Assembly: GCA_018873225.1 (NCBI GenBank)
Contig: JAEILZ010000002.1
Span: 4,526,001 to 4,590,000 of the forward strand
DNA from: [Phialemoniopsis] sp. UDSM-2020
Lineage: Eukaryota; Ascomycota; Sordariomycetes; Thyridiales; Thyridiaceae
Length of the DNA: 64,000 nt
Direction: 5' to 3'
Positions within the stretch are counted from its first letter, which is position 1. The number at the start of each line of letters is the position of its first letter. Position numbers and translations under genes: made by a program. The notes beneath the pieces are model-generated. The model saw nothing but the letters and a program-made list of their open reading frames with translations, was not told where the DNA came from and searched no databases. Shown piece by piece: positions 45,306 to 64,000 of the stretch.

Positions 45306-46513
45306 ATGAATCCCGCAAAGGCACACACAGATCTGGCCAAGTACCGCGTGCTTTCGCCAAAATGCGGCCTGCGTGTGTCGCCCCTGCAGCTCGGAGCCAT
45401 GTCCATTGGCGATGCCTGGTCCGACCAGCTGGGCTCTACGACCAAAGAAAAATGCTTCGAGCTGCTAGATGCCTTCTTTGAGGCCGGTGGGAATATGATA
45501 GATACTTCTAGTAACTACCAAGACGAACAGAGCGAGAAGTGGATCGGAGAGTGGATGGCTGCACGGGGGAACCGCGATAGTATGGTCATTGCGACCAAGG
45601 TAAGAGGTGGCGGGAAGCGCCAAGCAATTGATGGGAGCGAATCGTGGCTAATCACAACATCTATCCACGGCAGTATACGACCGACTACCGCACCCACGCG
45701 CTGGGCAAGAACAAAGCCCCCAATGCCGTCGGCAGCCACAAGCGCAACATGTTCCTCAGCCTGCGCGACTCGCTGGCCAAGCTGCAGACCGACTGGGTCG
45801 ACATTCTGTACGTCCACTGGTGGGACTGGACGACGAGCATCGAGGAGGTCATGGACGGCCTCGACATCCTGGTCAAGCAGGGCAAGGTTCTCTACCTCGG
45901 CATATCCGACACACCAGCCTGGATCGTCGCGGCGGCCAACACGTACGCCACAGCCCACGGCAAGACCCCCTTTGTCATCTATCAGGGGCGCTGGAACGTG
46001 ATGCGGCGCGACCTTGAGCGTGACGTGCTGCCCATGGCGCGCCAGTTTGGCATGGCCATCGCGCCGTGGGACGTGCTCGGAGGAGGGAAATTCAAGACCA
46101 AGGAACAGATCGAGCAGCGGAAACAAGAAGATGGCGGTACGCTGCGCAGGGTTTTTGGGGGTCCCGGTACCATGAGTGCCGACGAGGAAGAATACAGCGC
46201 CGCTCTCGAAAAAGTGGCGGGCGAGGTTGGTGCGCCCAGTCTGACGGCCGTCGCCCTGGCCTACGTGATGGCCAAGGCGCCGAATGTTTTCCCCATTATT
46301 GGTGGCCGCAAGGTGTCTTATCTGCAAGACAATATCAAGGCGCTTTCTATCAGGCTTAGCCCGGACCAGATCAAGTTTCTGGAAGGCGTGCGGCCTTTTG
46401 ACTTGGGATTCCCCGTCAACTTTCTTGGGACCGACGTCGGGCAGACCTTCTTCATCACCACTGCTGCAGATCTAGAATACGTCAAAGGGCCGAGGCCAAT
46501 TGGATATGAGTAG
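45306..46513 (+). CDS. Aldo-keto reductase (aryl-alcohol / norsolorinic-acid reductase type)
   Basis: Two exons (45306-45599, 45674-46513) encode 377 residues. The intron 45600-45673 joins MVIATK to [11 protein letters not shown]. The AKR barrel is complete: [17 protein letters not shown] holds the catalytic Asp and Tyr, VIATK the catalytic Lys, and ILYVHWWDW the catalytic His. The NADPH-binding part [17 protein letters not shown] follows. The sequence is closest in layout to fungal AAD/norsolorinic acid reductase-like proteins of about 380 residues. It probably reduces aldehydes or ketones with NADPH in the cytosol. A good TATA box precedes it, so regulation by stress or carbon source is plausible. 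No polyketide synthase lies nearby. Confidence 0.93.
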
Positions 46514-47198: not shown

Positions 47199-49214
47199 AT
47201 GGCACCCATAATACCGAATCATGGGTATTCGGACTCTAGCACTGACATTGAGGCAACTTCGAAGCCTTCAGAGTGGAAGTATGGCCCAGGGCCATCGAAG
47301 TCCAAGGTGGGCACCAGCATCCCGCTGCATCATGTTGCACACAGTACCTGACTACAGAACCGAGTAGACTGGCAATGATGTCGAAGGTGCAGGATTGCCA
47401 GAAAGTCTCCTAGCGTCACAGGTGCAAAGTCCCGGATGGATGGGAAAGATTGGGCATTTTGTCAAGCGTCATCCCATCCTGATCCATCTGACGATTGGGT
47501 CGCTGATGACAGCGTGAGTTTCACCTTTCGGTGTCTATGAGGACCGCCTTGCCTGCGCAATTGCTAATTATTTATCACAACAGATGGTGGGTGTACGGCC
47601 TTGTCTCTCACCGAGAAGACAACTGGCTCATTCCCTTCCTCGTATGGTTTGGCCTAATGGTCCGCCTAATCACCTGGAACACACCCTCACCATCTCGTCT
47701 CCTTCGCCCCATATCCGGACCAGTATCTACCTGGATCACCAAGTCCACTGCGACGATGGGGAAGTGGCGTCTTGCGGCAGGCATATTTGTGACTTTGGGT
47801 GTAATCGCGGCGGGCACATTTGTGCCGGGCGATAACGAGATGGGGACGAGGGGACAGCGGGCACTCAGCGGACTAGGCCTCTTCGCCATACTCGGCGGGC
47901 TGACATTGACTTCGAGGAACTTCAAGATGATCAATTGGCAAGCGGTAGTTGTAGGCACACTCGCTCAGTTCTTGCTGGGCATGTTCGTACTCAAGACGTC
48001 GGTCGGTGTAAGTATTTTCTCCTTCAAACACAAGACCATGACTTTGCGCCAGGCTCGATACTGACGATGCGAATTCGCCTCTTTCTAGTACGACATTTTC
48101 AAATTCATCGCCGACATGGCTATCAAGCTCCTCGGCTCCTCTTCCGAAGGCGTCGTCTTCCTGACCGACGCTGACGTCGCCAAGCTACCCTGGTTCCTCA
48201 TTGGCGTCGCCCCGCCCATCATCTTCTTCGTCGCCTTCATCCAGCTGCTGACCCACTGGGGTGCGACACAGTGGCTCGTCAAGAAGTTCGCCGCCATCTT
48301 CTTCACGACAATGCGCGTCTCGGGCGCCGAGGCTGTCGTCGCGGCGGCTTCGCCCTTCCTTGGCCAGGGCGAATCGGTTCTGCTGATCCGACCCTATCTG
48401 CCCTTGCTCACGGCTGCCGAGATACATCAGGTCATGGCTTCGGGCTTCTCCACGGTGGCGGGGAGCGTATTCTATGCATACGTCTCAATGGGTGTAGACG
48501 GCACGGCGATCCTCAGCTCGTGCATCATGAGCATCCCAGCCTCGCTTGTCGTCTCCAAGCTGCGGTACCCCGAGATTGATGAGCCCCTCACGGCTGGAAA
48601 GCTGGAGATACCGGAGGAAGATGTGGCGGATAAGGCACACAACTCCCTCGACGCATTCTCCAGAGGCGCTTGGCTGGGACTCCGGCTGGCAGGTATGATC
48701 ATCGCAGGTCTGCTTTGTGTCCTGTCCCTCCTTGCTCTTGTCAACGGTCTTCTCGGCTGGTGGGGCGAGTACATCAATATCACCGACCCGGTCCTCAGTG
48801 TCCAGATGATTGTCGGCTATATCTTCTTCCCCATCGCTGCAATTCTGGGAATACAGAAGGAAGACATGCTGCCGATTGCCCAGTTAATTGGCACCAAAGT
48901 TGTTGCTAACGAGTTTGTTGCGGTAAGTGATTCCCACAGTTCTTGACCCTGTCCGCAGTTGCTAAATGGCGATGCAGTATGCTTCGATGATGCAGGATGC
49001 GGCTTATGCCGACCTTACAGAACGTTCCAAACTTATTGGAACGTATGCCCTATGCGGTTTCGGCAATCTCGGCGCCCTAGGTATTCAGATTGGTATTCTG
49101 TCCCAGCTTGCACCTCCTAGTACGAAGAAGGTGACAGAGGTCGCCGTCTCGGCCTTGCTGGCGGGTATCATGGCGACTTTGACCAGTGCGTGTGTGGCAG
49201 GAATGCTAGCGTAG
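47199..49214 (+). CDS. Concentrative nucleoside transporter (CNT family)
   Basis: Five exons (47199-47306, 47368-47513, 47584-48007, 48089-48922, 48978-49214) encode 582 residues. The polar N-terminus (about 60 residues) is followed by a membrane domain with MVRLITWNTPSP, AQFLLGMFVLKTSVG, the gate region EAVVAAASPFLGQGESVLLIRPY, MASGFSTVAGSVFYAYVSMGVDG, NEFVAYASM and GFGNLGALGIQIG. These are the conserved CNT (SLC28/NupC) substrate- and cation-binding hairpins. The protein should take up purine or pyrimidine nucleosides with H+ or Na+. It stands directly before the carbamoylase/D-amino-acid-oxidase block and is convergent with the carbamoylase, so a link through pyrimidine breakdown products is conceivable but unproven. 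Confidence 0.93.
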
Positions 49215-49462: not shown

Positions 49463-50601
49463 CTACTCGCTCAGCAAAGGTGGTTCCTCCATACCGACTT
49501 GATCTATCAGCCGTGAGTAATGCTCAACCCTTCTGTGCTTCTCAAATGCGAATACCCGCTCTTTACCCTTCCGACACTTGGTGAGATCTATCGTCGCAAC
49601 GACGAGCTCATCCTCCTTGGTCTTGGACTCGGCAATGATGTGTCCGTTAGGGTCAACAATAGAAGATCCAGCAATCAGCGAGCCGTGGTCCTCTTTGCCC
49701 GCCTTGCCGGCGTGAATGCTGTAGCATGCATTCTGGTAGCTTCCCGCCTGGCAGGACAGCCGATGGTGAAACAAGGCTTCTTGTTCTTGCTCCTCATTAG
49801 ACCCGTCATATTGAGGCGCGAAAGCTGTAGTGTTGTATCCTTCCTGCGCGGTCATTAGTTCTCACCCCATCCGAATACTTAGGGAACAACAATTACCAGT
49901 AGAAGCTCTATGCCCTGCAGACCGTAACATCTCCAACCTTCAGCCCACCGACGATCGTTGCAGATCAACATGCCCAGGATTGGGTCGCCTTTACCCTCGG
50001 AATCCTTGGGGTCAGACAGCGATTGGGCGTCACCAGACTTCAATGCCCCCTTTACTAGCCCTGGTACGCGGAATGCCTGGAAGCCCAGGTTTCCCGGTGT
50101 GAAGTAACGCTTCTCCAGTTGTTGGGTAACTCCTGGGCGCGTGTCCGGTTCATATCTTCCAGGCAGGTGGATCTTTCTGTACTTGGCGATGCACTGTCGC
50201 TGAGTGGCAGAGTAATACACAGCCGTATTGTAATCGGTCACCTTGCCATCCTCGGCAGTCCACCGTTCTCCATAGCCAAAAGAGATATCGATGCCGAGCT
50301 CATTGGCCTTGTCGATGAGGGCTTTGGCATTTGGGGACGTGGTGATGGCATAAGGTTCTGAGGGCGACGCCGGCTCAAAGAAGGAAGCCAGTTGCTCGCT
50401 ATTTGTTATAACATAGCCCGGGAAGAACGTGGTGAACGTAAGCTCTGGGAAAAGCACCAGTCTGACTTTCTTCGCGGCTGCATCATCCAGCAGTTTGATC
50501 ATCCGATCCAGCACTTCCGCACGCGGGGTATCTAAGCTGGTAATTGCCCCGAGCTGGGCAGCTGCCACCGTTAGTAGTCTGGGCTCCCGCGTTGCTGCCA
50601 T
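49463..50601 (-). CDS. N-carbamoyl-D-amino-acid hydrolase-like enzyme (nitrilase superfamily)
   Basis: Two exons, 50601-49897 and 49843-49463, encode 361 residues; the intron 49844-49896 is phase 0. The nitrilase triad is E53 (FPELTFT), K143 (KYRKIHLPG) and C214 (LICNDRRW). Several stretches (EKRYFTPGNLGFQ, ICNDRRWAEGWR, EGYNTTAFAP, CQAGSYQNA, AGKAGKEDHGSLIAGSSIV) match the D-carbamoylase branch, which turns N-carbamoyl-D-amino acids into D-amino acid, ammonia and CO2. Compared with the roughly 304-residue bacterial enzymes it is longer, with an insert around residues 180-208 just before the active-site Cys. A CCG-N5-CGG site and a GATA site lie upstream. The D-amino-acid oxidase gene is its upstream neighbour on the same strand, which supports the D-specific call. 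No signal peptide is seen; the protein is probably cytosolic. Confidence 0.9.
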
Positions 50602-51058
50602 GGTTTCGGATGACTATGGCCCAATGATCACCGGTGGTAGAAGATGAACCAATCAGATGAAGTAAGCTTTAAACGCACAGTGACCCTACGTGCTTCGTTA
50701 TATTTCTATGAGGCAAGCTTATGAATGAAACGTCCAGTGTGCTCCACTCCGCCGACAGCGGATGGCGCAACCGACCATCGGCTTCGTTGTACCGACTGAT
50801 CTGCCACCTGCGTGAGCGTGACAAATGTACCCACCCAGCTGCCAGTTCGATACTGTCGACAGATAAGGTTGTGCAGAATATTAGGTATACAGCTGCCAAT
50901 TTTCAGACGTGATTGTTGTATGAGAATGAAACATATCAGAATGCACAACATCAATCGTGGTATGTAGACAACCAGACATATACGGAAAAGACTAGGTGTA
51001 GCAACGCAAGTTGAACAAGAGAATGCATTGTATTAAGATAGCTGGCCCGTCTAGATAC
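50602..51058. promoter_or_regulatory. Upstream region of the D-carbamoylase gene
   Basis: A 457-base stretch between the carbamoylase start and the 3-prime end of the oxidase gene. It contains CCGACCATCGG at 50771-50781 and a GATAAG at 50862-50867, matching sites for a Zn2Cys6 dimer and an AreA-type GATA factor. Short open frames here are not supported. Confidence 0.5.
50771..50781 (+). promoter_or_regulatory. CCG-N5-CGG site 1 (carbamoylase promoter)
   Basis: CCGACCATCGG lies about 170 bases upstream of the D-carbamoylase ATG. Near-identical 11-mers are found at 52516 and 58792, each in a promoter of the same block. Confidence 0.55.
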
Positions 51059-52369
51059 TTAAATGCGTGCTTGGGCTGGAAGCAAATCGGCTGCGTATGT
51101 TGCAAATCCCCTGTGATGAAGGTCAGCGCATGTCGCGATGTGATGAATCGAAGATAGACGTACCATGATGCCTGGAAACCTGTTCCTCCAGCACCGTAAT
51201 TGTGTATCACCAGTTTGCCATCGATCATTTCTGATTCAACTCGAGCGCCATCCTCCCGTCCAGCTGTTGAATTGGTCAGTTGAAGTCTCGAAAGATTAAA
51301 GTTTTGCTCAATGCACTTACGTCGGAGACCAACACCGTGCTTGATGATTTTTAGATCCTCTGGCTTCCCTAGCTCTGGCACCAAAGCACAGCAGCGCTTC
51401 TTGATGACCTCTGCAAACTCGGGGTCAACCTCGCCATTCCAGTCGTCCTTCTGGCGACAACCACCAAGAATTACACCTCCTCGCTCACCGCGAGGGAAGA
51501 TGTGAGTTGCTTCGCCAGCCCGGTGCGGTGCACGGAAGGCCATCTTGCGGATAGGCTTCTCAGGACCTTGTACCAGCATGATTTGACCCTATGCAATGGT
51601 CAGCTTGTTCAACGACTGGAATCGAAGATCTTACTCTTGCTGGGTACATTGTTTTATCTTCTACTCCACCCAGAGTGAGGGCACCCAGTCCGGTGCAGTT
51701 GAAAACCGCTGTTGCTTCGGGATAAACCTCGAAAGCCTCCTTGATGTGGCCAAAGATCCGTCGGTGTATCTCAATACCAAGTCTTGTTGCTTCCGTTTGC
51801 AGCCTGGGTCACTGGTTAGCTTAGTTGCATGCCGACAGAGAAAATATCCCCTACCAGGGCAGATATCTCTGGACATCGATCACAAAGCTAGCCATCTCGA
51901 AGCCGAATGCAGTGCCATCTGGTAGGTCCTTCTCCTCGATCTTCTTCAGACCACCCACAAGCTTCTCGAACCAGAGCTTGCCGGTTGCTTCCGTCTTGAT
52001 ACCGACCTCATCGATTGGATGCTCATAGTGCCAGCGAATGTTCATCGGTTTGACACCAGATTCTGGCCGGGATGACGAGATTTGCTTCAGCTTCCGATAT
52101 GTAATCGCCTCCCAGTCCTCCTGAGGGCCGTTGTCATTTGCTGCAGGAAACCAGTTTGCTCCGCCCCATGCGGAGGCGTACTCTGCGGCTGTGTCGCCGG
52201 GCAGGTACTTGGCGGCGATGACAATCGTGGCGTTGCGGTACCTGGCCCGGAGCTCCAGCGCCATGGTCAGTCCGACCACGCCGGCACCGATGACGACGAA
52301 GAAAGCTGGTGACAGGTTTTAGCTGTGATCTTGATTCTCAATCCCTTCCATGAAGTAAGACTTACGCAT
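51059..52369 (-). CDS. D-amino-acid oxidase (FAD)
   Basis: Six exons: 52369-52366, 52305-51855, 51803-51635, 51588-51321, 51263-51164 and 51110-51059, encoding 347 residues. The first coding exon is only ATG plus one base; the splice yields MPFFVVIGAGVVGLTMALEL, with the FAD GxGxxG at residues 8-13. Later hallmarks are YASAWGGANWFP, VFNCTGLGAL, YPARGQIMLV, HIFPRGERGGVILGG, GLRPGRE and HNYGAGGTGFQASWG, all typical of D-amino-acid oxidase. The enzyme converts D-amino acids to 2-oxo acids, ammonia and H2O2. The C-terminus is ARI, a weak variant of the peroxisomal PTS1 tripeptide, so peroxisomal location is possible but not secure. It lies between the carbamoylase and the hydroxyacid dehydrogenase, all on the minus strand. 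Confidence 0.93.
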
Positions 52370-52515
52370 ATTGGTTGATGAAAGACACTGAAAACAATTG
52401 TCAATATGTCGCTTTCATCACAATAGAGTGCACACATTTCCCACGCATTTAACAGGCACCTTGAAAGGTAATTCCGACGGTGGCGCCCGACGCAGGATCG
52501 GCGGGAGTGGACCGG

Positions 52516-52526
52516 CCGATGATCGG
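52516..52526 (+). promoter_or_regulatory. CCG-N5-CGG site 2 (D-amino-acid oxidase promoter)
   Basis: CCGATGATCGG lies about 147 bases upstream of the oxidase ATG, in the 299-base gap before the dehydrogenase 3-prime end. A TTATCA (GATA-type) word follows at 52529-52534. Confidence 0.55.
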
Positions 52527-52668
52527 CGTTATCAGTGAGCCCACCACATACCATCTTGATGGTTCGACTAGCACGTACAATCAGCCCATGCCTTTGATAT
52601 ACGATATGTTCATGAGATCTTAAACGCCTAGTGCAAAGAATATTCATTCAATGATATCTTGAAGTCTA

Positions 52669-53715
52669 TTATTCAGTGTTTTTGCTGATCTTATTTACAG
52701 GTGTCAGTGGAGCCCCTGTGTTGAAGAAGGCCTCAAAATTATCCCAGTTCGTCTTCTCAAAGTTTGCCCAACTAGAGTAGGAGCAGACGCCAATATGCGG
52801 AAGTAGAGTGACACGCCAGTTGTCTTTCAACTTGGGGTTGACGCCTGGCTCATTTGCGTGGACGTCAAGGCCAGCACCGGGTACTCGCCCGTCTTCTAAG
52901 GCTTCAATTAAGGCATCCTCATCGATCATTTGCCCTCTTGCAATATTGACGACCCGAAGGCCCTCATTTTTAGCCAACGAGAATTGCTTCTTGCCCAGAA
53001 GGTGATGTGTCTCCTTTGTATAAGGGGCGGCGAGAACAATGCAGTCCACGTGAGGAATCATGCCATCCACAGTCTGATGATATGTCGCTCCGTTCTTGAA
53101 CGTCCTCTCCTTATCAGGTTTTCGCCGCGGTCCCTGATAATGTATCTTCATGTTGAATGCGGCCTCTGCCTTCTGAGCGAGAGCCAGGCCGATATCACCC
53201 AGCCCAACCACCCCTAGCGACTTGAAAGTTGGATCGACACTCAGCGAACCCAACTCACGGCTCTTCATCCAGTCGTAACGAGCACACCATTGCGCGTAGC
53301 TGAAGAGTCGGAAAGTCTCCAGAATCAGGAACAAGGCGCTGTTCGCAACCGCCTCTGTGCACGCATCAGGTGTGTTACAGTACCAGATCCCTCGGGCCGA
53401 GATGGCGTCTACATCCGCCGCGTCGTGCCCGTGTCCGCTGCAGCAGATGATTTTGAGCGACGGCGGATAGTGAGGCACGACATTCGTGGCGAACGGCCGT
53501 ATGTACGCGAGTGGCCCGGCCTTGTGCCAACCGTTGCGGACGATGGCCACGAGATTCGCGTACGGCCCACCTGGCTTCATGCGCTCTTTGAACTCCTCGA
53601 TTGACTGGCAGTCATAGTAGATGAGATTGAACTTCTTTGAGAGCTTTTCTCTGCGAGGGCCATCGGCGACCTGGACTGTTGATTCTATCAACAAGACATC
53701 TGGTTTGCTCGTCAT
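52669..53715 (-). CDS. NAD(P)-dependent D-2-hydroxyacid dehydrogenase
   Basis: A single exon of 348 residues from the ATG at 53715 (MTSKPDVLL). The frame is open upstream to 53853, but those residues are unlike the family. The nucleotide-binding motif GVVGLGDIGLALA lies at about residues 171-183. The catalytic Arg is in VNIARGQMIDEDAL, the Glu in ANEPGVNP and the His in LLPHIGVCSYSS, so the active site is complete. The sequence follows the fungal D-mandelate/2-ketoacid reductase branch. The enzyme reduces 2-oxo acids to D-2-hydroxy acids or the reverse. Next to a D-amino-acid oxidase it could remove the 2-oxo acid produced there. It is head-on with no overlapping gene; its promoter is the 53716-54408 gap. 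Confidence 0.92.
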   Translation of the reverse strand: MTSKPDVLLIESTVQVADGPRREKLSKKFNLIYYDCQSIEEFKERMKPGGPYANLVAIVRNGWHKAGPLAYIRPFATNVVPHYPPSLKIICCSGHGHDAADVDAISARGIWYCNTPDACTEAVANSALFLILETFRLFSYAQWCARYDWMKSRELGSLSVDPTFKSLGVVGLGDIGLALAQKAEAAFNMKIHYQGPRRKPDKERTFKNGATYHQTVDGMIPHVDCIVLAAPYTKETHHLLGKKQFSLAKNEGLRVVNIARGQMIDEDALIEALEDGRVPGAGLDVHANEPGVNPKLKDNWRVTLLPHIGVCSYSSWANFEKTNWDNFEAFFNTGAPLTPVNKISKNTE

Positions 53716-54408
53716 GATGAGGGGCTTTTCGTGTGTTGAACGGTGATGCTTCCTGTGGCAACGAGTTGGATCCAACACGCTCGTCTTCGATTTCGAAACT
53801 ATCGTTCTCCGAATAGCATCAATTACCCCTCCAAGCAAGCATCTACTCGTCAAGCAAACACTATGCGTTGCCGACAGCAGGTGTCTACCGGCGGAGATGC
53901 ATCGGCAATAGCGAGCCGGTCATTCTCCAAGATCGACACCCTTATCGGCCCCGCTTTCTTGGCTGACATGTATCTCCCAGACATCGGCAGTGAACACCGA
54001 CCCGTTGCCGAGCTTCCGCGTCCACCGCTGATAAACATCATCATTAGGTACATGAAATCGGTCAACGAAGCCGTCAAACCACGCCGTCTTGGTTTACCCC
54101 AGCTTATCAATGAACTAGTCAATCTATTGAAACAAGGGACCCGGGAATCGGCACCCTGGAATGCGGGGGAGGCAATTATGTGATGACTTGATCGTCGGTG
54201 GTTATCCGGTTTCCTGGTAGCAAATTTGTCCTGGGTGGGCAAGTGGCTGGCCGGAGGTCAGCCCTGGCACAAGTGCTCACTTCCCAACCTGCTCGTGGTG
54301 AATGCTTGGTCTGTCAACAATGTTCTCTTGCGTACTGTTTCGATGTTGCAATATGCCTTATTTCATTAATGTCAAATAATATCTGTAATACAATGCAAAA
54401 TGCTTCGC
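53716..54408. other. Intergenic with an unassigned open frame
   Basis: A 693-base stretch. A plus-strand frame from the ATG at 53746 to 54183 (about 145 codons) begins only 30 bases from the divergent dehydrogenase start; it has no recognised domain and the middle part is only mildly protein-like. It could be a relic or chance. No CCG-N5-CGG site was found here. Confidence 0.4.
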
Positions 54409-57400
54409 CTAATTCTGTGTTGCCGTAGCCTCCCTTTGAGCAACGCTGCCATTGCCCCTTGTTACTGCGTTCGCAAACTTGTCACCGATCTTGAACGCTC
54501 CGAACAGCTCCTTCTTCTCGACCTTGCCAGGAGCAGGTCCATAGCCACCGCCACCGGGAGTGAGAACAATGATCCTGTCTCCAGCATTCATGGGAGCAGT
54601 TGCCTTGCCGCCCAGGTTGATTGTCCGCACCGACCCATCTTCTTGATCACGTCGGATCCACAGGTTGAGGCCTCTCTTTCCCTCATCACCGCCCGCCATG
54701 CCGTAGGGCGGAATCACCCTGCGCTCTGATAGAATTGACACTTGCAGAGGCCTGCGGAACTCAATGTCCCTCACACAACCATCGCCTCCCCTGTTCAGTC
54801 CATCGCCACCACTGCCATGCCGGATGGAGAACTCGTGTAGGAGCACTGGGTACCGGCGCTCAAAGATCTCAGGATCAGATATTCTCGTGTTAGTGACGTG
54901 CGTGTGCACACCACTCTCGCCCTCCCAATCGGCGCCAGCTCCTGAGCCTCCGGCAATTGTCTCGTAGTACCCAAAGCCTTTGGTGACCTTGCCAGTCTCT
55001 GGGTCTGTGCCACCATAGCCGAAGGTAAGGTTGTTGCAGGTTCCTTGCGAAGCGGCACATGCCTGGAAAGCCTTGAAGATCAAGTCAACAATTCTTTGTG
55101 AGGTCTCCACGTTGGATCCGACGGTTGCTGCCTTCAATGATGGTGACAGAATTGAGTCAGCAGGAAGCTTGAGCTTGATGGGTGCAAGACAACCCTGGTT
55201 AAGAGGGGTATCGGTGGCAATCATCGATCTCAAGCAGTACTGAGAAGTCGTTAGTGATCAAATCATCAATTCTTTGGTGGTGATCAACTTACCATGATTC
55301 CTGAGAGCATGACTGCCGGAGGGCAATTCAAGTTACCGAACTGCTCATGGCCTGTTCCCTCAAAATCAAAGGTTGCATCGCCGGTCTCGCTGTCGATATG
55401 GACCTTCAGAGACAAAGGTGTACCATCATCAAGATAGTCGGTGGCTTGCAGATCCTGGCCCTCGAATCGTTTCGAGAAGATCTTCAGTAACTCCCGTACA
55501 GATTGAGCGGCGTTGTTCTGAATCTGTTGCATATAGAACTCAACCACCGGCCAAGTGTACTCTCGCACCAGAGCTGTGATGAGCTGGATACCACGGTTGT
55601 TTGCGGCAATGGCTGCTTTCAAATCCGCAACGTTGTCCCGGAATGTCCTTGTGCCACTGCAGCCAGGGTATGACTCGGGAATGTCGACCAGGATCTCCTT
55701 CAAGCCGGCGTCATCGAAGTTGCCCTCCTTGACAATCTTGAACGTCTCCACGGCGACACCCTCCTGCCACAATTCCGTGGAGTTGGGAGGCATAGACCCA
55801 GGCTGAATACCACCAATGTCTGCATGATGACCACGGTTCGCAACGAAAAACAGAATCTTTGATGAGTCATTCTCGTCGAACACTGGCGTGGTCACAGTCA
55901 GATCGGGCAAGTGCGTGCCTCCCGCGCGCGGGTGGTTGCTCAACAGAACATCACCGGGCTTGAGCTCTCCAGGGCCGTACAGCCTAGCCTGGTAGGCGAC
56001 TGCATAGCTCATTGAGCCTAGATGGCCCGGAATGTGCGGGGCGTTGGCAACAAGTCCTCCGTCTGCCGAGAAGACGGCGCAGGAAAAGTCCAGGCGTTCC
56101 TTGATGTTGACCGAGATTGACGTCTTTTGCATGGTCTGGCCCATCTGCTCCGCGACGCTCATGAAGCGGTTGCCGAAGATGCTGAGCTGCACAGGATCGA
56201 CGGCGTTGGTGGCGATCTCTGCCCGTTCGACATCCAGGATCTCGAGAATCAAATGCTCCGATAGGATAACTGCAGCACTTGACGGGTCGACAACGATAGT
56301 TTGAGTCTTGTCGACAACCATAGCAGGGCCCTTGATGCGAGCTCCGACAGGGATGGCCCCGAGGAAGAACAGACCAGTCTCAGTCCAGCCCTGGCCTTCA
56401 AAGTAGACCTTCCTCATTGCCTCTGGCTGAACTGGAGTCACGGGTGGGCTTTCTTGTACCCTCTTCAACTCCTCGAACGGGCTCGTCAAGTTGAAGTCTG
56501 TGCCCTTTCCAACGCTTCGTACTCTGACATCATCCACAATAATGCTTCGAGGCTGGGTGAAGCCGAACTCCTGGTGGTGTCGGGCAGTGAAAGCATCAGC
56601 GAAGCCCGACAAGGAGCCGGGATCTTGAATCATCAAGGCGGTGTCACTACCCTGATACCTCATGTTCAAGAAGCATTCATGCCGAATGTCAACGTCGGTG
56701 AAGCCTTGTGAAACCAGGCCTTCTCGACCTTTGGCGCAGAGTCGATCGAAACGACCTTGCAGGATCTTTAGCGCATCCTCGGCAAAGATTTGTGACTCGG
56801 GTTCTTGATTCTCAACAACGACATCCGCAAGAGCCATTCCGTACGCGGACAGGATGCTTGAGTAGCGAGGGATGACAACATGTCGGATGCCGAGATCCCG
56901 AGCCACTGCCACGGCGTGTTGGCCACCTGCACCGCCGAAACAGCCCAAGTTATGAGCGGCAGTCTCGAATCCACGGCCTTCGCTGAGAGTCCTGATTGGC
57001 CGGGTCATCGTGGTATTCGCAACCATCAAGAATCCCATGGCCACTTCTTCCGGCGTGAATTCCTTGCTACCCTGTTTGTCGAGATTGATGGTCTTGGTCA
57101 GCTCGGCAAACTTCTGCTGTACGATCGTGTGATCCAGAGGCCGAGGGAACAGGTCAGGCACAATCCTGCCAAGGAAGAAGTTCGCGTCGGTGACTGTCAG
57201 GGGTCCGCCTTTGCCGTAGCATGCCGGGCCCGGGTTGGCTCCAGCACTTCCTGGGCCGACCTTGAACAGGCCACTCTCCCAGGTCAGGATTGAGCCGCCG
57301 CCGGCCGCCACTGTGTTGATGTCCAGCTGCGGCGTTTGGATCGTGACTTCCGCAATGGTGCTCTCAAAGATGTGTTCCAGAGAGCCAGCGTACCGTGCAA

Positions 57401-58451
57401 CATCGGTACTCGTACCGCCCACTGGTGAAAGGTTAGTAAGGTTAGATGCAGGAGGAATTCAGTGCAGCTTACTGTCGAATCCCAGGACGGGTCTCTTGTC
57501 GTTCACATCATAGCAGGTCTTGGACAGACCGATCACACCACCTGCAGGGCCACTCAAGACTCCACGAAGTCCGGTGAAGTTGGTGTATGATGTCAAGCCA
57601 CCATCTGACTGGTTCAAAAACAGCTTGTTCGCATGTTCGTCTTCAAGCTGGCCCTTGAAGCCTTTCCGGAAGCTCTCAAGATATTTCTGAGTGATTGGGG
57701 AGAGATAGGCATCCGCTACCGCTGACTGACTCCGAGGTACAATCTTGGTCATCTTGTTCAGTTCTGAAGAGACTGCGACCTCGAACCCGAGATCTCGGGC
57801 TACTTTTGCCACGCCGAGCTCGTGATCTTGATAAGTGTAGGAATGAAGCATGGCAACCGCAACACTTCGATAGCCCTGGGACCACAAGTCGGTAAGATCG
57901 CGACGGACCTGGTCGTAATCCGGAACTTTGATGATGCGCACGGCTTCGCCGGCCAATCCTTTCGTCAACTGGGGATCAGAGTCGACATCTATGGGCTGCG
58001 GCTCCGGATCTTCTGCAAACCCCTCAATCGTCACTCGCTCATCGACCTCAAGTACAGTTTTGTACAGCTTGGCCATTCGGCGAACAGAGAGATCAAAGAT
58101 GTGAGGCCGAGCCTGGTTGCCGATTTCCAGGATGTCCCGGAAGCCCTTGGTGATGACCAGCGCGGTGCGCTCTCCTTTCCGTTCCAAGAGAGCATTTGTC
58201 GCTACTGTCGTGCCCATGCGAATGCTCTCGACTTGGGCGAGGTCGAGTAACGTACCCCTGGGAATAGGCTCATTGGTGGCGATTTCTAATATTTGCCGGA
58301 TGCACTCCGTAGGAGCATCATCATACTCCTCGGGACATTGCGACAGAACCTTGATAACAAGCTCCTGTGGTTGCCTGTTTGGGATCCAAGCCCAGGCATC
58401 TGTGAAGGTACCGCCTCTGTCAATGGCGATGCGAATGCCAGCGTTCTCCAT
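54409..58451 (-). CDS. 5-oxoprolinase / ATP-dependent hydantoinase (HyuA-HyuB fusion)
   Basis: Three exons (58451-57473, 57421-55293, 55239-54409) encode 1312 residues. The introns are 57422-57472 and 55240-55292. The ATG at 58451 starts [20 protein letters not shown], the HydA N-terminal ATPase opening. HyuA elements [14 protein letters not shown], then (across intron 1) [11 protein letters not shown] and [15 protein letters not shown] follow. From about residue 740 the HyuB half begins, with [35 protein letters not shown] and, at the end, [10 protein letters not shown]. The length is that of eukaryotic 5-oxoprolinase. Family members cleave 5-oxoproline, or in bacteria hydantoin and N-methylhydantoin, with ATP. 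Next to a D-carbamoylase and D-amino-acid oxidase, a hydantoin substrate is attractive; 5-oxoproline remains the default. Confidence 0.94.
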
Positions 58452-59189
58452 GTCGGCTATGATGGGAGTGAGTCGTCTACTTTGCGATCTCACAATGTTG
58501 GCATGGACGGTATGTCAGTGATGATGAACTAAGTGCTAGCCAACTCTTATTCCCAGGCACCGATAGAGAAAAGAAGCCTCAGCCGGGGTGATAATCACTA
58601 GCTGGTTTTATTTAGCGTTCTTGATACCGATCTTTGTAAAGGTGGCAAGGGTGAGGACTGCATACATATCAAGTACCTAGTTGCACCGAACTGCGTGGTG
58701 GGATAAGCATTTACTTAGACGCCGATACTGTCGTGGACATGCCGAGCCCCTTGACTGGTGAAAAAGGACCGACCGGTTCGAGGAAACCGATCCGACGATC
58801 GGTCAAAATCGCCGACCCGGCTCCTGGCTCCGTTGTTACCCCGCAAGATAACCACTAGCTCTGACACTAAAGTACCCCAGATGACGAGGCGATTTACCAT
58901 ATTAGGTCAAGTAATCCCTTATCTTGACCGTTTGTCAAGCGTGTTTTATCTCTTGTGTTATCACTGGGTCTTCTCGGTTGCCTGACTAGCTTCCCTGATC
59001 CATTTTGATAGCGAAAGTGGCCCAGATCCCCAGCCAAGGGATTTGCACTTTTGCTCACAAGAGTTAAAACCCCTTAACACAGCCCGCCCTCATCTCTCAT
59101 TGAGGTGACAGTGGCAATAGTGTCTTTGTTGACATTGATATATATTTGATACTCCCAACTTGTTTTTTGCCTCGTGTGCATTGGCAACA
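58452..59189. promoter_or_regulatory. Bidirectional promoter of hydantoinase/5-oxoprolinase and MFS transporter
   Basis: A 738-base gap between divergent start codons. It holds the CCGACGATCGG site at 58792 and at least five GATA-type words (GATAAG 58702, AGATAA 58847, TTATCT 58919 and 58946, TTATCA 58958). A CCACTG-rich and TATATTTGA segment precedes the transporter ATG. This fits joint control by a pathway-specific Zn2Cys6 factor and nitrogen catabolite repression through an AreA/NIT2-type GATA factor; both are inference. Confidence 0.55.
58792..58802 (+). promoter_or_regulatory. CCG-N5-CGG site 3 (hydantoinase/transporter promoter)
   Basis: CCGACGATCGG lies 341 bases from the hydantoinase ATG and 388 bases from the transporter ATG. 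It shares nine fixed positions with sites 1 and 2. Confidence 0.55.
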
Positions 59190-60904
59190 ATGACAATGTC
59201 CGAGCAAATTCCCGCCTCCAAAGAAGCAGGCATGGTCGCCGAACAACCTTCCACTGGCTCTGGAGACTTTGAAAATGGCTCCTCGGCGTGTTACATCGAT
59301 CCTGTCAAGGAGAGACGGATGATGAGAAAGTTTGATGTTAGTACATTAACTCAATGGTGATTCAATATGCATACATGACTGATGTGCCTCTCTTCCAGAT
59401 CTATGCCGTGACTGCGATGGGTATCCTATACATGATGTCGAACTTGGACCGAAGCAACTTGGGAAATGCCAATATCGCAGGCTTGCCAGAGGACCTCAAG
59501 CTGGTCGGTAACCAGTTCGGAACCGCCACAACATTGCTGTAAAAGCTTCCACCCTTTGCAATTACCAATGACACTTCCTAACGTTGCCTTCTCTAGCTTT
59601 GCCACCTATGTTCCTCTCGAAGGACCTGCTGCAGTTCTTCTGAAGGTCGTTGGCCCGAAACCCCTCATGGCCATCAGTGCCTTTTGTTGGGCCTCTTGCA
59701 CCCTTGGAATGTGTAGGTAACCCCGATCATCGGCACCAATGGACCTGATCTGACCTGTACCAGCCTTCGTAAAGGACTACCGAGGCCTGTACGCCTGTCG
59801 CCTGATGATCGGCCTGTTCGAAGCCGGACTTATCCCTTGCATCAACGTATATATCGGATGGATCTACAAGCAGTCGGAGAGAGGAAAACGCTCTTCCCTC
59901 ATCTTCGCTTTCAGTGCTTTCTCCAGCGCCTTCGGCGGCATCCTGGCTTATGGCCTTACTCAGATTCGCACTGCCCACTTCTCTGGCTGGCAATGGCTCT
60001 TTGCCATTGAGGGCGCTATCACCTTCCTAGTCGTGCCCTTGTTCTGGTTCCTCTTCCCCAAGTCGCCGACCGAGGCATGGTTCCTGAATGAGGAAGAAAG
60101 GCACATGATGCGTCTGCGATATGACCAGAACCCCAACTGGGGCCACGACGACAAGTTCTCGTGGAGTGAGTGTCTCAAGGCGTTCGTTGACCCCAAATGG
60201 TATGCTTTCTTCATGTACCAGTTCTCGGTCAACGTGTCGCTTTATGCCTTGACGACCTTTATGCCTGCCATCGTCCGCGGCCTGGGCTACACCTCTGTCA
60301 ACGCGAACCTGATGACGGTCCCCATCTACATCTGCGCACTCGTCTTCTTCCTCACCATTGCCTACTTCTCGGATAAGACTGGATACCGCGGTCCCTACAT
60401 CTGCATCTGTCTTGTCTGCTTGATCATTGGCTACGCGCTCCTGATCAGCGTTGAGAACCTGAAGGTCCGATTCTTCGCATGTTTTGGTAAGCTTTGCATG
60501 CCCTCCCTGGCCGTGAGTTGACCGAGCTAATCTGAATAATAGTTGCGGCTCTTGGTATCTATCCCACGACGGGACTGTCCATCATGTGGGTGCAGGATAA
60601 CGTTTCAAGGCACTACAAGCGAGCGACCATGGTCGGCTTCACGCTTTGTCTCGGAAACACGGCGGGTGTTGCCGTTGGTCAGATCTTCACTGCGCAACAG
60701 TCACCGCGGTATATCACTGGACTGTCCATTGCCCTGGGCCTAGCTGGCTTCGCTCTTTTTATTGTTCTTGGACTCATGGGCAGCTTCTACTGGGTCAACA
60801 AGAGGCGGGCCGCCAAGCTTCTGGCAGCAGAGCAGGCGGGGAGACCAATTGCTCCCAACCCTGACCTAGGTGACTATTGTGCTCACTTTCGATACTCGCT
60901 GTAG
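59190..60904 (+). CDS. MFS anion:cation symporter, Dal5/allantoate-permease-like
   Basis: Five exons (59190-59336, 59399-59538, 59597-59712, 59764-60486, 60543-60904) encode 495 residues. The spliced sequence contains KFDIYAVTAMGILYMMSNLDRSNLGNANI, FATYVPLEGPAAVLLK, CRLMIGLFEAGLIPCINVYIGWIYKQSERGKR, SGWQWLFAIEGAIT and, late, NVSRHYKRATMVGFTLCLGNTAGVAVGQIF, all typical of ACS-family (Dal5-like) transporters. Such proteins carry ureides, allantoate, nicotinate and other organic acids. The shared bidirectional promoter with the hydantoinase gene makes it the likely importer of that pathway, for a hydantoin or an N-carbamoyl amino acid. The exon 2 donor (GTAAAA) is weak. The last few residues are uncertain because a 37-nt intron near 60869 could change the end. 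Confidence 0.9.
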
Positions 60905-61448
60905 ATGAATGTCTCGTGTACTAGGAGCATCTATCATACGCCGCCAGCATGGTGCTCCAAAGTTGATAGCTACGGTGATCAAGCTTAAGAAAGTAGATCG
61001 ATTCGCGTTAGTTACATGACCTCAATGATACAATGGCTTGTTCCATACACTCTCTACGCTATTCGTGCTTCATCATTACCATTTTAGGACGTGATTTTCT
61101 AAATATTCCCCTTGTGTTCAATGTGGGATGAATCATTCGCAGAATCTACACAATGTAGGCGGCCCATATTCTACGGGATGGTCATTTTTTCGTGGTCCCC
61201 TGGAAGAAGTCATCCAGTAGCCCCCTTGCTCCCTGCATGACTGATCGGATCAGCGTGCCGACTGGTTCCCGCTTATCACCGGCTCACTTGAATATCACCG
61301 ATGAGGAGCTGATAGTGTCCACTCCGCAATCGGGAAAGTTGATAATGGCATTACCAAGTAATAGTCATTCGTCTACTAAAAGCCATCTACCAGGTTACTG
61401 GTAATGCTATGAGATCTAGATGCTTATCAGATCCCATCACTATCCGAT
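60905..61448. other. Promoter region of the aminotransferase gene
   Basis: A 544-base stretch between two rightward genes. CCGCAATCGG at 61324-61333 is a CCG-N4-CGG variant, one base shorter in spacing than the three cluster sites. No gene is supported. Confidence 0.45.
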
Positions 61449-62778
61449 ATGCCTTCCCAACTGTCTCAAATTGCTGAAATCCCAAGAGATGAGGTATTCG
61501 CGCTAACGACCGACTTCAAAGCCGACAAACGCCCACACAAAGTTAGCCTGGGGGCAGGTGTCTACAGGGACGAAAACCTAGAGCCATGGGTCCTCCCAAG
61601 CGTTAAAGAAGTATGTAGCGCTCGGTGTAAGACGCAGCACCCGTATTCACATGATACGCTAACTTCTCTCACAGGCAAGAAACGTTCTTCATGGAAACAG
61701 TGGTTGGAATCACGAGTACCTGCCCATCCATGGACTGGAAGAGTTTTTGGATGTAGCAAGAGACTTGATCTTGGGCCAGGATGACGCGCTTGAGAATCCT
61801 GTAGTGTCCATTCAGACAATCTCAGGCACAGGAGCGAACCATCTAGGTGCCGCGTTCTTGGCACAGCAACTCAAACCTCGACATGTGTTCATCTCGGCTC
61901 CGACCTGGGGCAACCATCATCTCATCTGGGACTTTGCGGCTCCAGATGTTGTCCAGAGGACCTATCCGTACTACCATGCACCGACTCGGTCTCTGAATTT
62001 CGAAGGCATGATGTCCACCTTGGAGGCCGAAGCCACGGAGGATGACGTTGTGATATTGCATGCTTGTGCCCACAATCCCACGGGCATTGACCCAACTCGT
62101 GAGCAATGGAAGGCTCTAGCAGAGCTGTTCAAGCGCAAGAAGCTATTCGCACTCTTCGACTCGGCGTACCAAGGCTTTGCAACAGGAGATCTTGATGTGG
62201 ACGCATGGGCTGTCCGACATTTCCGCCAGGTTCTATTTCAGTCGGGCTCTACTTCAGGAGGACCTCAGGGCATGTGCATCGCACAGTCGTTCGCTAAGAA
62301 TTTTGGCCTCTACGGAGAACGTGTGGGCGCACTTCATCTCGTGCTAGCTCCTGGAACTCCAGAAGCGGGAGCGCGGACTCAGTTGCTTCGGCTGGTCCGA
62401 GGGGAGATCTCGAATCCTCCTGCTTTCGGGGCACGGGTCGTCCACACTGTCCTGTCCAACACGCAATTGCTGGACATGTGGCACAAGGACATACAAACGA
62501 TGTCCGGTCGTATCAAGAGAATGAGATCTCTACTAAGGCAGGCGATCGAAAAGCACCCCGGCGTGGGTGACTGGAGTAACCTGGAGTCTGAGATCGGCAT
62601 GTTCACGTTCACGGGCCTGAGCCCGGCCCATGTGCTCCGGCTGAAGGAGGTGCACCACATCTATCTGATGAACAGCGGAAGGGCTAGCCTTAGCGGACTG
62701 AACCAGAGGAACGTCAAGTATGTTGCAGATGCGATTTATGAAGTAATCAAGCACGAGGGACCACGGCAGTATAATTAG
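61449..62778 (+). CDS. Class I PLP aminotransferase (aspartate/aromatic type)
   Basis: Two exons (61449-61610, 61675-62778) encode 421 residues; the intron 61611-61674 is phase 0. The N-terminus VSLGAGVYRDENLEPWVLPSVKEA is typical of aspartate-aminotransferase family members. ISGTGANHLGAAFL, HACAHNPTGIDPT, FDSAYQGFATGD and the PLP lysine in AQSFAKNFGLYGERVG follow. RASLSGLN near the end contains the substrate-binding Arg/Ser region, although the usual GRIN-like motif reads NSGRASLSG. It would move amino groups between amino acids and 2-oxo acids, and so could turn the oxo acid from the D-amino-acid oxidase into the L-amino acid. No mitochondrial leader is obvious. It is convergent with the transcription factor gene, with about 80 bases between stops. 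Confidence 0.93.
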
Positions 62779-62859
62779 AAAGCGAACTTCTTCATGAGAC
62801 AGCTCAATCATTGTACATAGTGATGACACTTCTTGCTTTCTGCTATCTACCAGGAACAA

Positions 62860-64000
62860 TCAAGATGATGAAGTCTGGAATTGCTGTAGTACATATCCCA
62901 TTTCCTCGATGTTCAGACTTGGGTTCTCTTCTCTGCTAGCATCCGTATGATCGAGGAAGGCTTGGAGCGAGGGGTTATCCAGAGGATCAGCAGTCATGGT
63001 CTCAGGCTCTTCACCATCGTAGCTCGGATAGAATGAGTTCGGCATGAAGAAGTTGCTCCAGTCATAATTGTCCAAACCCAGCATGCCTGGCGGCGGTGGG
63101 TTAGACGGCGTGAGGTGCGTGCCCAGTGCAGCCGGTTCCTCGTTAGCAGGAGCCGAAGTCTCGATGGCAGGTGTTGTTCGAGAGTACAACCGGCTGACGC
63201 TCCACTGAATCTGGACGAGCCGAGAGAAGTACTGGCCAGCAGCTATGTTGCCATTGTCTCGCATCACCATGAGCAACTGGAACGCGGTCTGAACAGCGTC
63301 AGAGTCACCCGAATTTGGGGAGGTTATCGCCGATATGATAAGAACTAGTGTGGAGGCGAACAAATGATGGGCGTCAAAGTATCCGCATGTCGCAAGCGAG
63401 TTGTCCACAAAGAGTTGCGAGAGGATACTGTTCGAGGTACGTGCCGCAGATATGCATGAATCGGCCAATGATCTTGTGGTGTCCGAGATCGGTCTGGTGC
63501 TGGCGTCGCCCGGGTTGAAGGGGTTCTTGACCTTCAGCACGTACAGCAAGATCGGGCGAGTGGTCAGAATGATGCATTGGTTGAAATGCAGCTGTAGTGA
63601 TGCCACCGATCGTGGGACTCCTCCCTCTGGCTTCCACCGGAGGTTGGCCGGTAGGGTTGCGTCCCACGTCCTCAACTTTTGCAAGATCGCTCGTACATGT
63701 TGTACGAACTTCCCGCTGCTGGATTTTGAGGGAGGCTTGTAAATATCTGACATGATGAGACCAGTGATTTGCGACAAGCTAATGTGAGCGATCAAATTGT
63801 CAGGATCGCCGAGTTTTGACGGCTCATTTGCTGCAATGCCCTCCGACGACGGTATTTCCACGTCGATGTCCGAGTCTTGTATGGTCAAAGGCTGTCCCAG
63901 CTTTGAGCAGGTTGACCTGTCAAAAACATAGACGGTCCACCAGAGACGTATTCGATGTTCCCGTTCGATCGGAGAGAGGCAGGTGCTCGCTGAGGTACTT
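62860..64000 (-). CDS. Fungal-specific transcription factor, C-terminal part (runs off window)
   Basis: An open frame continues from the window edge at 64000 to the stop at 62860, about 380 residues. The first visible part is LSPIEREHRIRLWWTVYVFDR followed by GQPLTIQDSDIDVEIP, the signature of the fungal transcription-factor middle homology region (PF04082). The N-terminal zinc cluster must lie outside the window, so the Zn2Cys6 class is inferred. The C-terminus is acidic and rich in N, P, D and E (residues around DNYDWSNFFMPNSFYPSYDGEEPE), as in activation domains. It stands at the end of the hydantoinase/carbamoylase/D-amino-acid-oxidase block, so it is the best candidate to bind the shared CCG-N5-CGG sites. 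Confidence 0.88.
   Translation of the reverse strand, partial: STSASTCLSPIEREHRIRLWWTVYVFDRSTCSKLGQPLTIQDSDIDVEIPSSEGIAANEPSKLGDPDNLIAHISLSQITGLIMSDIYKPPSKSSSGKFVQHVRAILQKLRTWDATLPANLRWKPEGGVPRSVASLQLHFNQCIILTTRPILLYVLKVKNPFNPGDASTRPISDTTRSLADSCISAARTSNSILSQLFVDNSLATCGYFDAHHLFASTLVLIISAITSPNSGDSDAVQTAFQLLMVMRDNGNIAAGQYFSRLVQIQWSVSRLYSRTTPAIETSAPANEEPAALGTHLTPSNPPPPGMLGLDNYDWSNFFMPNSFYPSYDGEEPETMTADPLDNPSLQAFLDHTDASREENPSLNIEEMGYVLQQFQTSSS

What the first reader, a model, noticed from the sequence alone, without database searches (positions are those of the whole stretch)
49463..64000. Candidate fungal hydantoin / N-carbamoyl-D-amino-acid catabolic gene cluster
Seen: seven neighbouring genes encode a D-carbamoylase-type nitrilase, a D-amino-acid oxidase, a D-2-hydroxyacid dehydrogenase, a HyuA-HyuB (5-oxoprolinase/hydantoinase) fusion, a Dal5-like importer, a class I aminotransferase and a transcription factor. 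Known: in bacteria hydantoinase plus carbamoylase open 5-substituted hydantoins to amino acids, and D-amino-acid oxidase makes the 2-oxo acid. Inferred: together they form a route that salvages nitrogen and carbon from hydantoins or N-carbamoyl-D-amino acids. I know of no described fungal cluster that combines these parts.
Basis: partly seen in the sequence, partly recalled or inferred. Interest (0 to 1): 0.88.

Follow-up and report, generated by a model that had tools for sequence, protein, structure and literature searches.

The report
Fungal N-carbamoyl-D-amino-acid catabolic gene cluster
A fungus carries side by side genes that look fit to import, ring-open, de-carbamoylate and oxidise D-form amino-acid derivatives; the set shares a control signal, recurs in part in unrelated fungi and seems to have moved between them, but what it feeds on has not been tested.

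Summary
In detail: six intact genes and part of a regulator lie at 49463-64000: D-carbamoylase-type nitrilase (A), D-amino-acid-oxidase homologue (B), D-2-hydroxyacid dehydrogenase (C), HyuA-HyuB fusion (D), importer (E), aspartate aminotransferase (F), regulator (G). It is a real cluster. CCGAYSRTCGG has 84 sites in 44.2 Mb, four within 9 kb here, at A, B, D/E and in E. Of 15 A relatives with at least 70% identity, 8 share a contig with a B or D relative. Gene trees cross fungal classes: A shares such groupings with D and with B, suggesting joint transfer. Both carbamoylase loci of this genome have an oxidase homologue within 5 kb. HyuA/HyuB lie near 8 of 80 bacterial carbamoylases. Refinements: the oxidase active site is unusual, the aminotransferase is aspartate-type, hinting at acidic substrates; the carbamoylase has Gln at a substrate-contact His in all 120 listed fungal relatives. 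D may be a 5-oxoprolinase or lactamase instead, and D-hydantoinase-type genes lie elsewhere. N-carbamoyl-D-amino-acid catabolism is likely; hydantoin opening is plausible, unproven.

The parts
49463..50601 (-). Gene A: D-carbamoylase-type nitrilase, 361 aa, intron 49844-49896
   Evidence: E-K-C triad, CNDRRW and GYNT present; 46% identical to a bacterial carbamoylase
51059..52369 (-). Gene B: D-amino-acid-oxidase family flavoenzyme, 347 aa, 5 introns, C-terminal ARI (possible peroxisomal signal)
52669..53715 (-). Gene C: D-2-hydroxyacid dehydrogenase, D-mandelate-dehydrogenase-like, 348 aa, no intron
   Evidence: same C-then-B order in Curvularia kusanoi model P0255
54409..58451 (-). Gene D: HyuA-HyuB fusion, ATP-dependent cyclic-amide hydrolase family, 1312 aa, 2 introns
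   Evidence: phosphate, adenosine and metal motifs present
59196..60904 (+). Gene E: MFS importer, 493 aa, 4 introns, divergent from D
61449..62778 (+). Gene F: aspartate aminotransferase, 421 aa, 1 intron
   Evidence: yeast 1yaa, 1.8e-114
62860..64000 (-). Gene G: fungal transcription factor, C-terminal part; continues past the window (L009), Zn2Cys6-like motif about 1 kb outside
   Evidence: motif read by eye
50771..50781 (.). Promoter motif CCGACCATCGG, 170 bp upstream of A
52516..52526 (.). Promoter motif CCGATGATCGG, 147 bp upstream of B
54141..54151 (.). CCG-N5-CGG (CCGGGAATCGG), 426 bp upstream of C; weaker form of the motif
58792..58802 (.). Promoter motif CCGACGATCGG between divergent D and E
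59723..59733 (.). Motif CCGATCATCGG inside intron 3 of E (59713-59763)

Best explanation
The block is a locally regulated fungal nutrient-scavenging cluster for N-carbamoyl-D-amino acids and probably a cyclic precursor. Inferred route: E imports the carboxylate; D spends ATP to open a cyclic amide or imide (hydantoin-type); A hydrolyses the N-carbamoyl group to CO2, NH3 and a free D-amino acid; B, probably peroxisomal, oxidises it to the 2-oxo acid, NH3 and H2O2; F, an aspartate aminotransferase, links an acidic 2-oxo acid (oxaloacetate or 2-oxoglutarate) to L-Asp/L-Glu; C reduces a 2-oxo acid or feeds one in from a D-2-hydroxy acid; G switches the set on through CCG-N5-CGG sites. Shown here: gene content, intact catalytic motifs of A and D, shared motif, linkage of A with B or D in other fungi, cross-class gene trees. 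Inferred: every reaction in this organism, the acidic preference, the link between G and the motif.
For: A is nearest to N-carbamoyl-D-amino-acid hydrolases (6.4e-67 to 1.2e-63 against 6.5e-9 for the next family) and keeps the E47/K127/C172, N173, R175/R176 positions (numbering by my count). A and B have adjacent gene numbers in Phialemonium thermophilum (VTK73DRAFT_9903/9902), two apart in Clonostachys chloroleuca (V2G26_007724/007726; that B model is a 194-aa fragment), four apart in Penicillium hispanicum (N7459_000163/000167; A there only 56% identical). 8 of 15 A clusters with at least 70% identity and 90% coverage share a contig with a B or D homologue. Both of the 2 carbamoylase loci in this genome have an oxidase homologue within 5 kb; the second also has an MFS gene and two regulators. 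In P. hispanicum the B gene model also holds a Ribonuc_L-PSP (RidA-type) domain. Motif: 4 of 84 genomic sites in 8,963 bp, Poisson 3.5e-9, 0 of 20000 random placements. A shares two cross-class groupings with D and one with B. In 3 of 80 bacterial carbamoylase loci HyuA follows the carbamoylase directly on the same strand.
Against: No expression or activity data. Position 144 of the carbamoylase, a substrate contact in a simulation (PMC11503299), is Gln in all 120 listed fungal relatives (of 2710 found) versus His in 60 and Asn in 8 of 68 readable bacterial loci. B has His where the carboxylate-binding Tyr sits, and Asn where D-aspartate oxidases have His, so acidic preference is uncertain; Foldseek and sequence put it nearer to a D-amino-acid oxidase. 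D could be a 5-oxoprolinase or lactamase. D is not on the A/B contig in Phialemonium thermophilum; Thyridium curvatum, with a D 94% identical, has no A or B among the 120 listed of each. Several shared contigs are megabases long, where sharing alone is weak evidence. F and G show no exact motif in front; with one mismatch allowed CCGANNNTCGG is not enriched in the window (28 found, 27.17 expected). Linkage of C rests on one genome, of E, F, G on none outside this one. Homologues of B, C, F near 80 bacterial carbamoylases: 0, 0, 0; of E: 1.
Confidence: 0.55

Rival explanations
1. The cluster degrades D-amino-acid lactams or peptides rather than hydantoins: D is a 5-oxoprolinase or lactamase acting on 5-oxo-proline-like rings, B oxidises the D-amino acid, and A removes another amide or carbamoyl group. 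The M19 dipeptidase gene beyond the regulator would fit peptide-derived D-amino acids.
For: HyuAB family includes 5-oxoprolinase and caprolactamase (PMC8453981; NCBIfam best hit caprolactamase, far below its cut-off); position 144 changed in fungal A; M19 dipeptidase at L009 2931-3878; D-hydantoinase-type genes elsewhere could make N-carbamoyl-D-amino acids without D.
Against: A keeps the carbamoylase core and no other solved family is close; the best solved match of D is named N-methylhydantoinase; no exact promoter motif at the dipeptidase.
Confidence: 0.2
2. Core module is only A plus B (carbamoylase and oxidase, with importer and regulator); D, C and F are accessory genes recruited in some lineages, and no ring opening is needed because N-carbamoyl-D-amino acids are taken up directly.
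For: Second carbamoylase-oxidase neighbourhood without a HyuAB match in the fetched 18 kb; A and B adjacent with D on another contig in Phialemonium thermophilum; more distant A and B relatives on one contig in Pleurostoma richardsiae, Aspergillus steynii, Aspergillus ellipticus and Geosmithia morbida.
Against: D shares the cluster motif and two of the A tree's cross-class groupings; D shares the contig with A in 5 of the 15 clusters.
Confidence: 0.15
3. Chance or loose neighbourhood of common catabolic genes; Hydantoinase_B, oxidase, aminotransferase and MFS genes are numerous in this genome.
For: About 18 Hydantoinase_B loci and about 15 oxidase-homologue loci, counted by eye; E, F and G could not be tested in other fungi.
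Against: Motif concentration, linkage of A with B or D in other fungi, shared groupings in trees.
Confidence: 0.07

Closest known systems
Bacterial hydantoinase process (D-hydantoinase plus D-carbamoylase)
   Same: N-carbamoyl-D-amino-acid hydrolase of the Glu-Lys-Cys nitrilase type; ring opening then carbamoyl removal
   Different: Here an ATP-dependent HyuAB fusion stands beside the carbamoylase instead of a zinc D-hydantoinase, and an oxidase, an aminotransferase and a dehydrogenase follow; with these fungal queries at E 1e-5 no homologue of those three was found near 80 bacterial carbamoylases
Bacterial ATP-dependent HyuA-HyuB hydantoinases and caprolactamase CapAB
   Same: Same domains and the same phosphate, adenosine and metal motifs (PMC8453981); HyuA directly beside a D-carbamoylase in 3 of 80 bacterial loci
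   Different: Fused in one chain, like the 1288-aa solved N-methylhydantoinase and, as recalled, eukaryotic 5-oxoprolinases; substrate unknown
Fungal D-amino-acid oxidase (Rasamsonia, 7ct4) and D-aspartate oxidase (Cryptococcus humicola, 9vpf)
   Different: Arg at two side-chain positions as in human D-aspartate oxidase, His in place of the carboxylate-binding Tyr
Inducible fungal catabolic clusters, e.g. the nicotinate hxn cluster of Aspergillus nidulans (PMC5746545, abstract in a search listing only)
   Same: Co-located enzymes and regulator for one nitrogen source
   Different: Different chemistry; expression not tested here
Horizontal transfer of D-amino-acid enzymes in fungi (PMC5169069, passages)
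   Same: That paper reports transfer of racemases and of the oxidase family among fungi and from bacteria
   Different: The word carbamoyl does not occur in its main text and the passages seen describe single families, not a gene cluster

Membership tests
N-carbamoyl-D-amino-acid hydrolase (D-carbamoylase) | Glu-Lys-Cys catalytic triad | tested here: met
   FPEL, KIH and ICNDRRW motifs aligned to the bacterial enzyme
N-carbamoyl-D-amino-acid hydrolase (D-carbamoylase) | Asn173 and Arg175/Arg176 around the substrate | tested here: met
   CNDRRW in A; roles from passages of PMC11503299 and PMC11151596
N-carbamoyl-D-amino-acid hydrolase (D-carbamoylase) | His144 (substrate contact; not invariant even in bacteria) | tested here: not met
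   Gln in 120 of 120 listed fungal relatives; bacteria His 60, Asn 8 of 68 readable of 80 loci. Therefore called D-carbamoylase-type
N-carbamoyl-D-amino-acid hydrolase (D-carbamoylase) | Activity on N-carbamoyl-D-, not L-amino acids | not testable with these tools
   Needs enzyme assay
D-aspartate oxidase | Arg237 and Arg278 (human numbering) | tested here: met
   R253 and R297, each in 15 of 15 close homologues (64-81% identical) (roles from PMC8260693)
D-aspartate oxidase | Arg216, the side-chain carboxylate residue | tested here: inconclusive
   R227 pairs with it in the HMMER alignment and is Arg in 13 of 15 close homologues, but the MAFFT column puts another residue there
D-aspartate oxidase | Tyr223 and the active-site His | tested here: not met
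   His237 at the Tyr position in 15 of 15; Asn52, the fungal D-amino-acid-oxidase residue, in 15 of 15 (PMC6697736). Not filed as D-aspartate oxidase
Fungal D-amino-acid oxidase | Asn near the amino group, carboxylate-binding Tyr and Arg | tested here: not met
   Asn52 and Arg297 met, Tyr replaced by His237. Filed only as D-amino-acid-oxidase family
HyuAB / 5-oxoprolinase ATP-dependent hydrolases | DxGGTxTD, DxGGT, GxxPGP and HxxD...H metal site | tested here: met
   All found in D; motif roles from PMC8453981
HyuAB / 5-oxoprolinase ATP-dependent hydrolases | Which ring is opened | not testable with these tools
   I found no sequence feature here that separates hydantoinase from 5-oxoprolinase or lactamase
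Aspartate aminotransferase | PLP Lys and dicarboxylate-binding Arg (recalled roles) | tested here: met
   SFAKN and VRGEISNPP align with yeast SFAKN and IRSEVSNPP
Co-regulated fungal catabolic cluster | Conserved co-location in other fungi | tested here: met
   A with B or D: 8 of 15 clusters; C with B: one genome; E, F, G not testable
Co-regulated fungal catabolic cluster | Local regulator with shared promoter sites | tested here: inconclusive
   Motif at A, B, D/E, weaker at C, none at F or G; binding by G not shown
Co-regulated fungal catabolic cluster | Co-expression | not testable with these tools
   No expression data

The most novel reading that the evidence does not exclude
A horizontally moving fungal catabolic cluster that salvages acidic N-carbamoyl-D-amino acids (N-carbamoyl-D-aspartate or -glutamate) and their cyclic hydantoin forms, in which an ATP-dependent HyuAB replaces the zinc D-hydantoinase and a new D-amino-acid-oxidase subfamily with an unusually cationic active site hands its oxo acid to a dedicated aspartate aminotransferase.
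Probability: 0.25. Interest if true: 0.78.

Novelty: new variant of a known kind. Interest (0 to 1): 0.6.

Why it matters
If true, fungi own a complete, regulated and transferable route from carbamoylated (perhaps cyclic) D-amino acids to central metabolism, a nutrient niche that I know only from bacteria. It would give functions to many fungal genes now named 'CN hydrolase', 'FAD oxidoreductase' or '5-oxoprolinase', and supply new eukaryotic enzymes for D-amino-acid chemistry. It also raises a clear question: what natural source of N-carbamoyl-D-amino acids is worth a dedicated, shared gene set?

Tried and rejected

Considered and rejected: B as a plain D-amino-acid oxidase (two extra Arg, Tyr to His) and B as a true D-aspartate oxidase (His and Tyr features missing). 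F as an aromatic aminotransferase: it scores above the cut-off of the NCBIfam subfamily so named (389.1 against 377), but the 60 solved matches shown, of 83, are all named as aspartate aminotransferases. My first idea that Fusarium carbamoylases keep His144 was wrong: by my count their His is at 143. The oxidase-family gene beside HyuAB at C1:8.08 Mb looked by eye like a different FAD oxidoreductase.

Limits: other fungal genomes could not be fetched, so linkage was read by eye from contig lengths and gene numbers in the protein lists, each cut to the best 120; clusters pool strains, so a missing match is not evidence of absence, and a shared contig of several megabases is weak evidence. Trees used a hand-picked subset: 15 close and 4 distant relatives for A, 14 and 3 for B, 22 and 2 for D, each with the window's protein. 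The D tree is a quick one without bootstrap, and no clade test was run on it. In the distance comparison (12 species for A-D, 8 for the others) some rows pair congeneric species or strains (Ilyonectria, Fusarium, Clonostachys, Stachybotrys, Paecilomyces), and shared species history alone would also give a correlation. Motif and spacing were chosen after looking at the sequence. Clade tests used taxon groups named after the trees had been seen.
Full report
What is there. The window is C4:4526001-4590000 of an unnamed 44.2 Mb fungal genome in 11 contigs. G continues to the right and a Zn2Cys6-like motif was read by eye about 1 kb outside the window. D is 94% identical to a protein of Thyridium curvatum, so the host is probably a relative (Sordariomycetes, Thyridiales).

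Is it a cluster? First, regulation. The palindrome-like CCGAYSRTCGG (two CCG half-sites 5 bases apart, as Zn2Cys6 regulators often bind; recalled) lies 170 bp before A, 147 bp before B, between the divergent D and E, and inside an intron of E. It has 84 sites in the whole genome; the same pattern read backwards, as a control, has 117. Four sites in 8,963 bp are far from chance: Poisson 3.5e-9, and 0 of 20000 random placements of 84 sites had any such group. The looser CCG-N5-CGG occurs 19 times in the window, 4 of them in the 2,734 bp between the cluster genes, one of these (54141) before C. Against: F has none, G has no exact site in front, and with one mismatch allowed CCGANNNTCGG is not enriched in the window (28 found, 27.17 expected). 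The motif was noticed by eye, so these numbers are not corrected for motif choice. Binding by G is a guess.

Second, conservation. From the protein lists (120 shown of 2710, 7998 and 1250) I compared contig lengths and gene numbers by eye. Of 15 A clusters with at least 70% identity and 90% coverage, 8 share the contig with a B or D homologue: Stachybotrys elegans (A, B and D), Thelonectria olida, Ilyonectria destructans, Neonectria ditissima and Apiospora phragmitis (A and D), Phialemonium thermophilum, Clonostachys chloroleuca and Periconia digitata (A and B). These contigs run from 55 kb to 37 Mb, so for the largest only the gene numbers count. The other 7 show no match, which the pooling of strains can explain. 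Gene numbers, where readable in one strain, are 1 apart (Phialemonium), 2 (Clonostachys, where the B model is a 194-residue fragment), 4 (Penicillium hispanicum, with a more distant A), and 6 for D and B in Paecilomyces lecythidis. Against: in Phialemonium D is on another contig, and no A or B of Thyridium is listed. In Curvularia kusanoi one gene model joins a C homologue (62% identical over 198 residues) to a B homologue (77%), in the same order as here. Links of E, F and G outside this genome could not be tested.

Third, repetition in the same genome. There are two carbamoylase loci; the second, at C1:5.39 Mb, is just under 5 kb from another oxidase homologue and has an MFS gene, a POT peptide transporter, an alpha/beta hydrolase and two fungal regulators around it (the oxidase piece itself reached no Pfam family). 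An aspartate aminotransferase paralogue lies beside an oxidase paralogue at C4:3.68 Mb.

Fourth, history. Trees of A, B and D break up the fungal classes. A joins Fusarium (Sordariomycetes) with Periconia and Exserohilum (Dothideomycetes) at 100/99, and Parastagonospora (Dothideomycetes) with Apiospora (Sordariomycetes) at 100/100. B joins Fusarium with Periconia at 100/99. D joins Parastagonospora with Apiospora, Colletotrichum and Microdochium at 100, and Paecilomyces (Eurotiomycetes) with Stachybotrys chartarum at 99; A shows that last pair too, at 83/89. Not shared: in B the places of Paecilomyces and Parastagonospora are unresolved, in D Fusarium stands alone on a long branch and several Eurotiomycetes branch off first. 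Holding Dothideomycetes together is rejected for A (p 3.6e-6) and B (3.0e-10), Sordariomycetes for A (4.1e-6) and B (5.5e-65); D was not tested. Class placements were looked up for eight species, the rest are recalled. Pairwise distances of A and D, B and D, A and B correlate (0.68, 0.71, 0.58; permutation 0.0002, 0.0002, 0.0054), as shared history of any kind would give. The simplest reading of the cross-class groups is movement of the genes together between fungi; hidden duplication and loss is not excluded. Transfer of single D-amino-acid enzymes among fungi has been reported (PMC5169069, passages).

What the enzymes do. A is 46% identical to a bacterial N-carbamoyl-D-amino-acid hydrolase, with a loop of some 30 residues that the HMMER alignment leaves out, and keeps the catalytic Glu-Lys-Cys and the Asn/Arg residues near the substrate (PMC11503299 and PMC11151596, passages read). 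Position 144 (by my count), near the catalytic Cys and a substrate contact in a simulation there, is Gln in all 120 listed fungal relatives; in bacteria it is His in 60 and Asn in 8 of the 68 loci in which the motif was readable, out of 80. So the fungal enzymes are a distinct subgroup and may have a shifted substrate range.

D keeps the ATP and metal motifs, so it should be active, but its family opens hydantoins, 5-oxoproline and caprolactam (PMC8453981, passages and outline). An aspartate aminotransferase and an importer next to B point to an acidic oxo acid, hence N-carbamoyl-D-Asp or -Glu and perhaps their cyclic forms; this is inference. A bacterial precedent exists: of 80 bacterial carbamoylase loci (the best of 582 found), 8 hold HyuA or HyuB homologues within the fetched flanks, and in L048, L074 and L094 the HyuA match starts within 400 bases downstream of the carbamoylase on the same strand; homologues of B, C and F were found in 0 of 80 and of E in 1.

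Verdict. The cluster is real and its core chemistry, carbamoyl removal from a D-amino acid followed by oxidation, is well supported by family and linkage. Hydantoin opening by D and the acidic preference are testable guesses. I know of no report of such a fungal cluster; the searches named in Tried and rejected found none, in a library limited to open-access papers.

Noticed in passing
whole genome G000; e.g. C4:3112533, C5:1493547, C1:6644729, C8:3593419: About 18 Hydantoinase_B loci (counted by eye, one a short piece), a large expansion of HyuAB/5-oxoprolinase genes in one fungus.
   Followed up: partly
L031-L032 (C1:5386001-5404000): Second carbamoylase neighbourhood: regulator, MFS, carbamoylase, POT transporter, alpha/beta hydrolase, oxidase homologue, regulator.
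   Followed up: partly
L033 (C4:3674001-3684000): Regulator-like frame (by eye), aspartate aminotransferase and D-amino-acid-oxidase homologue side by side, on the same contig 0.9 Mb away.
   Followed up: partly
L009 2625-3878: M19 membrane dipeptidase gene just beyond regulator G; could feed D-amino acids from peptides, but has no exact cluster motif.
   Followed up: no
C4:3491122-3492579, C8:25633-26802, C6:326373-327897: D-hydantoinase/dihydropyrimidinase-type genes unlinked to the cluster, the first above the NCBIfam cut-off.
   Followed up: no
window 47510-49213 and 45303-46513: CNT-type nucleoside transporter and aldo-keto reductase genes left of the cluster; no exact cluster motif there.
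   Followed up: no
window 36885-38306: Gene with the SBD_N and NBD_C domains, recalled as those of four-carbon acid sugar kinases better known from bacteria.
   Followed up: no
P0252 (Penicillium hispanicum): B homologue joined in one gene model to a RidA-type domain, which would fit clearing of the imine product; may be a model fusion.
   Followed up: partly
L008 (C1:8083888-8087997): MFS exon, FAD oxidoreductase and HyuAB side by side, another possible catabolic group.
   Followed up: no
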